The translations under genes were made by a program, and so were the position numbers. This document shows, piece by piece, positions 41,386 to 45,262 of a stretch of 64,000 nt of DNA. How positions within the stretch are numbered: position 1 is the stretch's first letter; every line of letters begins with the position of its first letter. The stretch spans positions 1 through 64,000 of the forward strand of contig JAFQAZ010000024.1 of the NCBI GenBank assembly GCA_017416855.1, written 5' to 3'. The stretch is from Clostridia bacterium (GTDB taxonomy: Bacteria; Bacillota; Clostridia; UBA1381; UBA9506). The notes beneath the pieces were generated by a model. That model saw nothing but the letters and a program-made list of their open reading frames with translations, made no database searches and had not been told where the DNA came from.

Positions 41386-42114
41386 ATGGGCAACGAATTG
41401 ATTTTAGTTGCAGATAGCGATGAACGGATTTTAAATCTTGTCAATGTGACCTTAAAGGCTCACGACTACCGATGCATGACTACAAAAACAGGCGAAAGTG
41501 CATTGGTGCTGGCCAATTCCAACAATCCGGATGTGATTATTCTGGATGTGGTGCTGCCGGATATGGATGGCACGGAGGTTATTAAAACCATTCGCTCCTG
41601 GTCTGATGCACCTATTTTGGTTATCAGCACAAGAAACGAAGATCACGATAAGGTGATGGCGCTGGATGCCGGTGCAGATGATTACATCACCAAGCCCTTT
41701 TCAGTTGAAGAACTGCTGGCCCGTATTCGCGCGGTGAAACGCCGGTTTAACCGCTACGCAGAGCGTCAGACCGAAAATGTGTTTGTCAACGGCCCCTTAA
41801 CGGTGGATTACGATGCCGGCTGTGTTTTTGTGGAGGGACGCGAAATTCATTTAACGCCCATAGAGTACAGGGTGCTGTGCTTGCTTTCGCAAAATGTTGG
41901 CCGTGTGCTGAGCTACAATGTTATCACGCAGAAGATATGGGGCAGTAGCTTCAGCAGTCAGGTGATGACTTTGCGCACCTTTATGGCAACCCTGCGGAAA
42001 AAGCTGGATGCCTTCGGAGAAGCCGGCAGCTTACTGCAAACACAAACCGGTGTGGGCTATAAAATGATAAAACGGCAGGAAGAAACGCTGGAAAGCGAAA
42101 CAGAACGATACTGA
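41386..42114 (+). CDS. OmpR/KdpE-type response regulator, orphan
   Basis: A 242-residue regulator: receiver domain (1-120) with phospho-acceptor Asp54 in VIILDVVLPDMDG, Ser81 in VISTRNE and Lys103 in YITKPF, then a winged-helix DNA-binding domain (LTPIEYRVLCLLSQNVGRVL and QTGVGYKMIK). The N-terminal acidic pocket reads VADSDE rather than the usual two adjacent acids, so metal binding may be weakened. No histidine kinase is adjacent; it sits 14 bases after ilvN and 20 bases before the Card1-like gene, probably in one transcript. Confidence 0.92.
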   Translation: MGNELILVADSDERILNLVNVTLKAHDYRCMTTKTGESALVLANSNNPDVIILDVVLPDMDGTEVIKTIRSWSDAPILVISTRNEDHDKVMALDAGADDYITKPFSVEELLARIRAVKRRFNRYAERQTENVFVNGPLTVDYDAGCVFVEGREIHLTPIEYRVLCLLSQNVGRVLSYNVITQKIWGSSFSSQVMTLRTFMATLRKKLDAFGEAGSLLQTQTGVGYKMIKRQEETLESETERY

Positions 42115-42134: not shown

Positions 42135-44234
42135 ATGACGTTGATTGAATTGTTTGATGATTGCCAGATTGAAAATGTAATAGCCGGACTCAGAGTTTGT
42201 CCTGAAAAAATCATTTTTGTCGGTTTTAAAGAAACCATGGAGGAAAAACGAACCGAGGCGTTGGAAGCATTTTTTACAATGCGCAACATCTGCATCAAAC
42301 TGGAATACATTGTGGTTGAACGGGATGATTTTGCACAGATTTGCGGTGTTTTACATAACATCATTGATAAAAATGATGATTGCTGTTTCGATCTGACAGG
42401 GGGTAAGGAACTGGTGTTAACGGCCATGGGAGCTGTTTCGTCAGAACGGAATATTCCTATGATTCAGTTTGATGTGGAAACGGGCAAAATGCTTCGCGTC
42501 AGACATGCAGAAGACATTCCCGAAACAGAAAACAGTACTATGACCATAGCAGAAAGTATGGTTTTAAACGGCGGCTCTGTTGTGCCGGACGAAGAAGGCT
42601 TTTTTGAATGGGATATAACAGAAGAGTTTACAAAAGATGTGAAAGCAATGTGGGAAATCTGCCGGAATAAGTGCGGTTTGTGGAATTGCTGTTGTTTTGC
42701 TTTTTCCATTTTGGAAGAAAACGGAATACTGGATGAGGAGCTGAAGCTTTCTGCCGATGTCCGCTGTCTGGAGCGAAAGAAAATCAAAATTCAATGGGAT
42801 AACGATGTGATTACAGCGCTGGCTAACCAGGGGTTAATCAAGGAGTTTACCATAGAAAACAATCATATTTCGTTTGCTTATAAAAACCGGCAGGTGCAGG
42901 CGTGTCTTACCAAAGCCGGCAATATTTTGGAACTATATACCTATTTGACACTTAGGGGGATTGCTGAAAAAGAGCCGGGTTGCTATGATGATATTGACAT
43001 TGGCGTTATGGTGGATTGGGATGGTATTATTCACGATGCAGATGCTGAAGAAAAAGATACCAGCAACGAAATTGATGTGATGCTGATGCGGGATCTGGTG
43101 CCGGTTTTCATTTCCTGCAAAAACGGAGAAGTGAAAAAAGAGGCCTTGTATGAACTGGAAACGGTGGCGAACAAATTAGGCGGTAAATATGCCAAAAAGA
43201 TTTTGCTGAGCACCTTTGTGTGTAAAAATCCAAATAGTCGGAAATTCATTGAGCAACGGGCAGAGGATATGGGAATCCGGCTGATTACAGGCGTAAATAA
43301 AATGGATGAATTTGGGTTTATTACGGCGTTAAAAACGAATATACAACAGGAGGACAATATGAAAAATTTAACCATTACAGATGTGAGAGTGCAATCAGGG
43401 GATAGCGCCTTTTTGATTGATGACGGAAAAACGGCCATTCTATATGATTCCGGCTTTGCCTTTACCGGTTATGCCGTTGCTGATAAAATCAAGGAGGTTC
43501 TGGGCGAGAGAAAACTGGATTACATTTTTCTGACTCATTCCCATTATGACCACGCATTAGGTTCGGTATATGCTAAGAAGTACTGGCCGGAAGCGAAAAT
43601 TGTAGCCGGAGAATATGCGGCTAAAATCTTTGCAAAAGACAGTGCCAAGGCCGTGATGAGAGACCTTGATAAGAAGTTTGCTAAAACCTGCGGTGTGGAC
43701 GAATATGAGGATTTAATCGATAACCTTTCTGTGGATATTCCTGTAGCAGAAGGAGATGAAATTACAGCGGGGGATTTATCCTTTACTGTTTTGAATCTGC
43801 CGGGACATACCAAATGCTCTGTTGGCTTTTATTGCCCCGAACACAAATTGCTGTTGGCTTGTGAAAGCATTGGGGTGTATAACGGCGAGGATGATGTGGT
43901 GCCGTCTTATTTGGTAGGGTATCAGATGAGTATGGATTCTATCGAAAAGGTAGAACAGTTAGATATTGAGCAAATCCTGGTGCCTCATTACGGCTTGGTT
44001 GATAAAGAAAAGGCAGAATTTTACTTAAAAAAAGCAAAACAAAGCGCCAAGGAAACCGCTGAAGAAATTGTGGGAATGCTTAAAGAAGGCAAAGCAAAGG
44101 AAGAGATTGCAGAATTTTTTAAAGATAAGTTTTATCACGGTTACATTCAGATTGTTTACCCTCTTGATGCCATGGAACTGAATACCGGCATTATGATTAA
44201 CCTGTTGGAGCGTGAATTTGGTCTGGCAGAGTAG
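42135..44234 (+). CDS. Card1-like (DUF1887) CARF nuclease joined to a metallo-beta-lactamase-fold domain
   Basis: One open frame of 699 residues. Residues 1-150 form a CARF-like Rossmann domain with FDLTGGKE (85-92); the middle is helical. Residues about 265-400 look like a PD-(D/E)xK nuclease: Asp314 in NEIDVML and FISCKNG (Ser327-Cys-Lys329), where Treponema Card1 has ECK. From residue 409 a complete MBL domain begins MKNLTITDVRVQSG with metal site THSHYDH (467-473) and LPGHTKCSVGFYCPEH. Exactly at the junction AGGAGG lies 5 bases before an in-frame ATG (43359), so this looks like two former genes whose stop was lost; CAA or CAG codons at 43344/43347 are one base from TAA or TAG. Both the fusion and a free MBL protein could be made. 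No CRISPR locus is visible in the window. Confidence 0.7.
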   Translation: MTLIELFDDCQIENVIAGLRVCPEKIIFVGFKETMEEKRTEALEAFFTMRNICIKLEYIVVERDDFAQICGVLHNIIDKNDDCCFDLTGGKELVLTAMGAVSSERNIPMIQFDVETGKMLRVRHAEDIPETENSTMTIAESMVLNGGSVVPDEEGFFEWDITEEFTKDVKAMWEICRNKCGLWNCCCFAFSILEENGILDEELKLSADVRCLERKKIKIQWDNDVITALANQGLIKEFTIENNHISFAYKNRQVQACLTKAGNILELYTYLTLRGIAEKEPGCYDDIDIGVMVDWDGIIHDADAEEKDTSNEIDVMLMRDLVPVFISCKNGEVKKEALYELETVANKLGGKYAKKILLSTFVCKNPNSRKFIEQRAEDMGIRLITGVNKMDEFGFITALKTNIQQEDNMKNLTITDVRVQSGDSAFLIDDGKTAILYDSGFAFTGYAVADKIKEVLGERKLDYIFLTHSHYDHALGSVYAKKYWPEAKIVAGEYAAKIFAKDSAKAVMRDLDKKFAKTCGVDEYEDLIDNLSVDIPVAEGDEITAGDLSFTVLNLPGHTKCSVGFYCPEHKLLLACESIGVYNGEDDVVPSYLVGYQMSMDSIEKVEQLDIEQILVPHYGLVDKEKAEFYLKKAKQSAKETAEEIVGMLKEGKAKEEIAEFFKDKFYHGYIQIVYPLDAMELNTGIMINLLEREFGLAE
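43348..43361 (+). promoter_or_regulatory. Internal ribosome binding site and start inside the Card1-MBL frame
   Basis: AGGAGG (43348-43353), 5 bases, ATG (43359-43361), in frame with both domains. This is as good a Shine-Dalgarno as any in the window and would yield a separate 291-residue MBL protein. Confidence 0.65.
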
Positions 44235-44248
44235 AAAGGGGTAACAAT

Positions 44249-45262
44249 ATGCAGTTGACAGTGAAACAAATTGAGTCCATCACCAAAGGAGCAGTTTCTG
44301 TAACAGAAGAAGCAGAGGGTATTTTGTTTCATCGCTTTACCGAAGAACAGGAAAAACTGTTTCAGGAAGAAAGACCCTGGCACTATTATAATACAAAGTC
44401 CCCTGCCGGTGTGAAACTGCAGTTTACAACAGACAGTGAAAAACTTTTTGTAAAGCTGAAAACCGAAATGGGGGATTCACGACATTTCTTCTCTTTGGAA
44501 GTCTTTGTTGATGGTAAAGAAATTGGTTGCATTCAGAATTATGATGAAAAGATTCTGATGGATGATTACATGCATGAGCGGTTTTCGGATGGAGAATATC
44601 AAAAAGAGTTTTTTCTGGGCAATGGGGATAAAACCGTTTGCGTTTACCTACCTTGGTCGCTGAATTTTTACTTGAAGGAATTCTCTTTGGAGGAAGGAGC
44701 AACTTTTTCACCGATTAAAACGGCAAGAAAACTGTTAGTGTTTGGTGATTCCATCACCCAGGGATACGATGCATTAAAAAGTCATCACCGTTATGCAGCC
44801 CGACTTAGTGAGACACTTTCGGCCGAGGAGATAAACAAGGCCATTGGTGGTGAAAATTTCTTTCCCAAACTGGCAGAAATCAGCGATGATATTAAACCGG
44901 ATTATGTTACTGTGGCTTATGGCACCAACGACTGGTGCATACGGGAAAGGTGCGCTTTTGAAAAAAACTGCAAAGATTTTTACGAAATCTTAAGTGCCAA
45001 GTATCCCGATGCAAAAATCTTTGCTATCTCACCAATATGGCGGATTAACCATGATGAAGATCAAAAAATGGGACCGTTTACATTGATCGAGGAGACCATT
45101 CGTAAGGTGGTTGAACCTTTGCCGAATGTTACATTCATACGTGGTTTTGAACTGGTGCCGGGCGATGTTAAATACTTTGCCGATGGCCGCGTACATCCCA
45201 ATGATGAAGGGTTTGATTATTATTTTAAAAACCTGTATGAGGAGATAAAGAAATATTTGTAA
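44249..45262 (+). CDS. SGNH/GDSL-family hydrolase with N-terminal beta domain
   Basis: A 337-residue cytoplasmic esterase-like protein. An N-terminal beta-sandwich (about 1-150) resembles those in CE2-type acetyl esterases. The SGNH domain has VFGDSITQGYDA (catalytic Ser), YGTNDWCI (block III Asn) and DGRVHPND (Asp-His dyad). It probably removes acyl groups from a sugar or other small molecule. It lies 14 bases after the Card1-MBL gene, behind AAAGGGG, and shares its transcript up to the strong terminator downstream. Confidence 0.85.
   Translation: MQLTVKQIESITKGAVSVTEEAEGILFHRFTEEQEKLFQEERPWHYYNTKSPAGVKLQFTTDSEKLFVKLKTEMGDSRHFFSLEVFVDGKEIGCIQNYDEKILMDDYMHERFSDGEYQKEFFLGNGDKTVCVYLPWSLNFYLKEFSLEEGATFSPIKTARKLLVFGDSITQGYDALKSHHRYAARLSETLSAEEINKAIGGENFFPKLAEISDDIKPDYVTVAYGTNDWCIRERCAFEKNCKDFYEILSAKYPDAKIFAISPIWRINHDEDQKMGPFTLIEETIRKVVEPLPNVTFIRGFELVPGDVKYFADGRVHPNDEGFDYYFKNLYEEIKKYL

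What the first reader, a model, noticed from the sequence alone, without database searches (positions are those of the whole stretch)
42135..44234. Card1-like CARF nuclease joined in frame to a metallo-beta-lactamase domain
One frame encodes a DUF1887/Card1-type protein (CARF motif FDLTGGKE, PD-(D/E)xK-like core NEIDV...ISCK) followed by a full MBL hydrolase (THSHYDH). Card1 is a cyclic-oligoadenylate-activated effector of type III CRISPR systems; a partner with a metal hydrolase could act as an off-switch or second effector. The catalytic Glu position of Card1 (ECK) reads SCK here, so activity may differ. It sits with an orphan response regulator and an SGNH hydrolase, with no cas genes in the window.
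Basis: partly seen in the sequence, partly recalled or inferred. Interest (0 to 1): 0.85.

Follow-up and report, generated by a model that had tools for sequence, protein, structure and literature searches.

The report
Orphan Card1-like nuclease, accidental read-through
The apparent two-part protein is two unrelated neighbouring genes, a Card1/Can2-type CARF nuclease and a metallo-hydrolase with its own start signal, joined only because the first gene's stop codon is missing in this one genome; the nuclease belongs to a large clostridial group with an altered active site and usually no detectable type III CRISPR in the same genome.

Summary
The 699-codon frame at 42135-44234 is real and both domain calls hold. 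Residues 1-404 are a full-length CARF plus PD-(D/E)xK protein of the DUF1887/Card1/Can2 family; residues 409-699 are a complete metallo-beta-lactamase-fold (MBL) hydrolase. The fusion does not stand as a biological unit. All eight relatives of the hydrolase are separate genes starting at the same residue, and no Card1-like homologue examined carries an MBL. Fifteen Card1 homologues, including the four nearest in the order, end exactly after residue 404; the next codon here is CAG, one transition from TAG, and it overlaps AGGAGG-N5-ATG, the hydrolase's own Shine-Dalgarno and start. A sister species has the same upstream operon without the block. So this is a stop-loss, or a consensus error, between two genes. 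The SCK motif is not a local defect: 51 of 51 homologues have Ser in place of the catalytic Glu of ExK, and all carry a Glu on the next helix (E340, or E337 with K340), as if the carboxylate had moved, as in NgoMIV/Cfr10I. Only 4 of 49 clostridial genomes with this gene have a detectable Cas10; this genome has none, nor Cas1. That orphan SxK clade is the interesting part.

The parts
41386..42114 (+). Response regulator (receiver + winged helix) at the end of the ilvB-ilvN operon; upstream neighbour, not part of the system
   Evidence: Pfam Response_reg 5.3e-27, Trans_reg_C 8.3e-18; same order ilvB-ilvN-regulator in sister genomes G007 and G002 that lack the Card1 gene
42135..43346 (+). Card1/Can2-like CARF plus PD-(D/E)xK nuclease gene, residues 1-404
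   Evidence: 15 homologues end after residue 404
42135..42509 (+). CARF domain (about residues 1-125), motif FDLTGGKE at residues 85-92
   Evidence: structural alignment of residues 1-124 to CARF domains of Csm6, Csa3, Cam1, Cad1, Z 11-14
42930..42932 (+). Codon of E266, invariant helix Glu, equivalent by alignment to the Cdn1 E274 region
   Evidence: 51 of 51; Cdn1 residues from PMC12825302
43068..43076 (+). Codons of E312-I313-D314 (NEID motif, metal-binding acids)
   Evidence: E312 and D314 in 51 of 51; equivalent to SthCan2 E276/D278
43113..43121 (+). Codons of S327-C328-K329 (SCK in place of ECK)
   Evidence: 51 of 51 homologues have SCK; three solved relatives have ECK
43152..43154 (+). 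Codon of E340, proposed relocated catalytic Glu on the helix after the SxK strand
   Evidence: E340 in 39, E337 with K340 in the other 12 of 51; K at this position in the three ECK proteins
43347..43349 (+). CAG codon at the position where the nearest relatives have their stop codon; one transition from TAG
43348..43353 (+). AGGAGG Shine-Dalgarno sequence of the hydrolase gene, 5 bases before its ATG
43359..44234 (+). Metallo-beta-lactamase-fold hydrolase gene, 291 aa, own start
   Evidence: Lactamase_B 5.6e-23; eight stand-alone relatives, 58-75% identical over the full length, the seven with an annotated start here beginning M-x-x-(L/I)
44249..45262 (+). SGNH/GDSL hydrolase, downstream neighbour with its own start
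   Evidence: Pfam Lipase_GDSL_2 3.5e-20

Best explanation
Two independent genes lie head to tail: an orphan Card1/Can2-like nuclease (residues 1-404) and a stand-alone MBL hydrolase (291 aa, start at 43359). The stop codon of the nuclease gene, which overlapped the Shine-Dalgarno sequence of the hydrolase gene (TAGGAGG), reads CAGGAGG in this assembly, through a real T-to-C stop-loss or, less likely, a consensus error; because the hydrolase ATG is in frame, one long frame results. The hydrolase should still be made alone from its own start; read-through would add a fused product. The nuclease most likely works as a CARF-gated metal-dependent nuclease: a small ligand binds the dimeric CARF pocket, the PD-(D/E)xK domains come together and cut nucleic acid, using E266, E312, D314, K329 and a Glu relocated to the following helix (E340) in place of the ExK Glu. 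Shown by sequence: the two genes, the missing stop, the start signal, the fold, the SxK and Glu pattern, the absence of Cas10 and Cas1. Inferred: stop-loss, ligand gating, catalysis with the relocated Glu.
For: MBL relatives are separate genes with the same N-terminus in 8 loci, 58-75% identical, with unrelated upstream genes. Card1-like homologues end after residue 404 in 15 cases including G035, G051, G013 and G017; codon 405 is CAG. G035 carries both genes on different contigs. Sister species G007 has ilvB-ilvN-regulator (96, 100, 84% identical) and then an unrelated gene; DNA similarity ends at 42080. Block GC is 0.40-0.42 against 0.45-0.48 upstream. Fold and profile matches to Can2, Card1, Cdn1 and VC1899. 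SCK in 51/51 with Glu at 340 or 337 in 51/51; K340 in the three solved ECK proteins.
Against: The stop is truly absent in the only sequence available, so a fused product may exist in this strain. The CARF sequence match in Pfam is below the cut-off. The Glu relocation is inferred from an alignment; the 337/340 swap is a single event on the tree, and side-chain geometry could not be measured. A dead nuclease cannot be excluded.
Confidence: 0.85

Rival explanations
1. Consensus or assembly error: the true codon is TAG and there is no joined frame in the organism at all.
For: One base is enough; 15 relatives end exactly there; the Shine-Dalgarno and ATG are intact.
Against: Single-base consensus errors are rare in assemblies of ordinary depth; no reads or second strain were available.
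Confidence: 0.25
2. A functional Card1-MBL fusion in which the hydrolase degrades the activator or acts as a second effector.
For: The frame is open; other MBL-fold proteins are known to cleave cyclic nucleotides (phage anti-CBASS nucleases, PMC9117128, title and abstract only).
Against: No relative is joined or adjacent in over 50 Card1-like loci and 8 MBL loci; MBL relatives occur in genomes without the Card1 gene (G001, G008, G012, G016, G040); no linker beyond four codons; the internal start signal is intact; no Cas10 in the genome.
Confidence: 0.04
3. The SCK clade is a family of dead or non-nuclease CARF proteins, retained as sensors or ligand sinks.
For: The ExK Glu is essential in Cdn1 (E323A abolishes activity, PMC12825302), and the E302A/K304A double mutant of TsuCan2 is inactive; it is Ser in all 51.
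Against: All other active-site residues (E266, E312, D314, K329) are invariant in 51 of 51 and a Glu is always present on the next helix, which a dead enzyme would not keep.
Confidence: 0.2

Closest known systems
VC1899 of Vibrio cholerae (PDB 1XMX), orphan DUF1887 CARF protein
   Same: Same two-domain fold over the full length (Z 31.2, 363 residues); orphan without type III CRISPR (PMC7969007).
   Different: 16% identity; ECK with K at the 340 position, where this clade has SCK with E340 or E337.
Can2 (7BDV, 8Q3Y, 8BAO), Card1 (6XL1, 6WXW) and Cdn1 (9U49)
   Same: Full-length fold match, Z 21-28; invariant NE(I/L)D and K of the active site.
   Different: They are cA4-activated effectors of type III CRISPR systems and need the ExK Glu; here the Glu is Ser and no Cas10 is found. 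By sequence alignment none of the four cA4-contact residues shared by Can1 and Can2 (S19, T42, K99, Y118 of Can2) is kept (my reading of the alignment; weak at 15% identity).
NgoMIV/Cfr10I-type restriction enzymes (PD-XXK-E active site)
   Same: Acidic residue of the ExK strand relocated to the next helix (PMC551604).
   Different: Analogy only; unrelated enzymes, and the spacing here is K-x10-E or K-x7-E.
Metallo-beta-lactamase superfamily hydrolases of the Lactamase_B family; PqsE is the best solved sequence match
   Same: HxHxDH, a further His at H150 and H210, over the full domain.
   Different: About 4e-7 match only; the usual metal-bridging Asp position reads Glu (E169), invariant in all nine; function not known.

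Membership tests
DUF1887/Card1/Can2 family | N-terminal CARF domain (Rossmann-like, dimeric nucleotide pocket) | tested here: met
   Predicted fold residues 1-126 align to CARF domains, Z 11-14, and the whole chain to Can2/Card1/VC1899, Z 21-31. Pfam CARF_Card1 below cut-off.
DUF1887/Card1/Can2 family | C-terminal PD-(D/E)xK endonuclease domain | tested here: met
   Pfam Card1_endonuc above cut-off; E312, D314, K329 in 51 of 51.
DUF1887/Card1/Can2 family | Catalytic Glu of the ExK half-motif | tested here: not met
   Ser in this protein and all 51 homologues; a Glu on the next helix instead. Defines active enzymes, not the fold family.
Type III CRISPR ancillary effector | Cas10 (cyclic oligoadenylate synthase) in the genome | tested here: not met
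   No Csm1 or Cmr2 above cut-off, no RAMP, no Cas10 palm domain, no Cas1 in G000, 96.9% complete. One homologue, in G017, does sit beside Cas10-Cmr3-RAMP genes.
Type III CRISPR ancillary effector | Activation by cA4 or cA6 | not testable with these tools
   Needs biochemistry.
Card1-MBL fusion protein | Joined domains conserved in relatives | tested here: not met
   Separate in every relative.
Metallo-beta-lactamase superfamily | HxHxDH plus downstream His ligands | tested here: met
   H60, H62, D64, H65, H150, H210 invariant in nine sequences; Lactamase_B 5.6e-23.

The most novel reading that the evidence does not exclude
The SCK clade is a widespread family of stand-alone CARF nucleases with a relocated catalytic Glu that answers to a nucleotide signal made by something other than Cas10.
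Probability: 0.3. Interest if true: 0.65.

Novelty: new variant of a known kind. Interest (0 to 1): 0.35.

Why it matters
The joined protein itself would mislead anyone who built an off-switch model on it. The clade behind it matters more: Card1/Can2 nucleases are regarded as type III CRISPR effectors, yet 45 of the 49 sampled clostridial genomes with this SCK version have no detectable Cas10, and the enzyme has replaced the Glu that is essential in the studied members. If the nuclease is active, it uses a rearranged active site and probably another activating signal, both of which can be tested on a single purified protein. The case also shows how a stop codon that overlaps the next gene's Shine-Dalgarno sequence lets one substitution create a false fusion.

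Tried and rejected
Designed fusion: rejected on synteny, C-terminal ends and the internal start. SCK as a local loss of activity: rejected, invariant in 51 homologues. Phage or plasmid carriage: no hit in phages, none confirmed in viral contigs, one 25% plasmid match in Peptoclostridium. Link to type III CRISPR across the class: Card1-like present with Cas10 in 4 of 49 genomes against 61 of 342 without the gene; Fisher p = 0.10, so no positive association and no proven avoidance. The Cas10 search includes weak hits near the threshold that may be GGDEF proteins; with hits of 40 bits or more it is 3 of 49 against 39 of 342, p = 0.33. CD-NTase (SMODS) as another signal source in this genome: none found. 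A sequence search for solved SCK relatives found none. A literature search for a CARF-MBL fusion gave nothing on point. The homologue set comes from a profile built on SCK proteins, so ECK relatives in the same genomes may be under-sampled.

Full report
What is there. The frame at 42135-44234 is open over 699 codons. Residues 1-404 are a Card1/Can2-type protein: Pfam Card1_endonuc above its cut-off, PADLOC CARF4_PDDEXK over residues 2-404 at 1.7e-41, a profile match to Can2 7BDV and VC1899, and a predicted fold that covers VC1899, Can2, Cdn1 and Card1 over the full length, Z 21-31. Residues 409-699 are a full MBL hydrolase.

Why it is two genes. The DNA reads ATA CAA CAG GAG GAC AAT ATG: an AGGAGG five bases before an ATG. 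All five AGGAGG-N4-9-ATG sites in the window stand before open frames of 60 to 396 codons. That ATG is where eight relatives of the hydrolase start as separate genes, 58-75% identical over the full length, each after an unrelated gene. The Card1-like relatives stop earlier: 15 of them, including those of G035, G051, G013 and G017, end right after residue 404. Codon 405 here is CAG, one transition from TAG. G035 has both genes on different contigs; other genomes have one or the other. In the sister species G007 the ilvB-ilvN-regulator operon is followed by an unrelated gene, and DNA similarity ends at 42080 inside the regulator's 3' end. The three genes downstream have a lower GC, 0.40-0.42 against 0.45-0.48, and both the nuclease and the hydrolase are most like versions from another family of the order (54% to G035; 75 and 73% to G040 and G035, against 62 and 61% in the same genus). 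A joint or successive horizontal gain fits; the order of events is not known.

Stop-loss or error. A single strain is available, so I cannot tell a real stop-loss from a consensus error. I favour a real substitution because single-base consensus errors are rare, but that is a judgement. In either case the hydrolase keeps its own start.

The active site. I collected 51 Card1-like proteins from the class by profile search. All have S327, C328, K329, E266, E312 and D314. In Cdn1 the equivalent of S327 is E323, and E323A abolishes activity (PMC12825302); in TsuCan2 the E302A/K304A double mutant is inactive (PMC7969007). Yet all 51 proteins have a Glu on the following helix: E340 in 39, and E337 with K340 in 12. 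Positions 337 and 340 lie one helical turn apart in a predicted helix (335-352). The three solved ECK relatives have K at 340. This pattern is what one expects if the carboxylate has moved from the strand to the helix, as described for Cfr10I and NgoMIV (PD-XXK-E, PMC551604). The 337/340 exchange is one event on the tree, so the support is one exchange plus invariance, not many independent exchanges. Side-chain geometry was not measured.

Signal. No Csm1, Cmr2, RAMP, Cas10 palm or Cas1 was found in this genome, and no SMODS nucleotidyltransferase. Across 391 clostridial genomes, 49 carry a Card1-like gene at E 1e-8 or better and 4 of these have a Cas10 hit. One relative does sit next to Cas10, Cmr3 and a RAMP gene, in G017, so a type III link exists in the family. 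The cA4 contacts that are shared by Can1 and Can2 seem not to be kept, as in the orphan VC1899; at 15% identity this is a weak point.

Verdict. What is left is a member of a sizeable, mostly Cas10-less clostridial clade of Card1/Can2 proteins with a variant active site. The gene is a good test object; the fusion is not.

Noticed in passing
L105:3015-7253 (G396); also L106, L107, L014, L015: Card1-like CARF-nuclease module at the C-terminus of a protein of about 1400 aa whose N-terminal part is a protein kinase domain (Pkinase 1.5e-13, PD-T4-6-like). Frames of 1300-1440 codons with a match occur in G321, G429, G061 and G075 too; only L105 was scanned for domains.
   Followed up: partly
L104:3577-6060 (G372): A second in-frame join: an SCK Card1-like protein runs into a CCA-adding tRNA nucleotidyltransferase at an internal AAAGAGG-N5-ATG; probably the same kind of accidental read-through.
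   Followed up: partly
L067 (G163): A Card1-like gene broken by a TAA into two frames, 189 and 147 aa.
   Followed up: no
L019:1694-7496 (G017): A Card1-like SCK gene next to Cas10 (Cas10-Cmr2_palm2 3.9e-22), Cmr3 and RAMP genes, a type III-B-like locus.
   Followed up: partly
43359-44234: The hydrolase belongs to a well conserved family of the order in which the metal-bridging Asp position is an invariant Glu (E169), with an extra helical C-terminus; function unknown.
   Followed up: partly
41386-42114: A response regulator with no kinase beside it sits in a conserved ilvB-ilvN-regulator order in sister genomes; it may regulate or be co-regulated with branched-chain amino acid synthesis.
   Followed up: no
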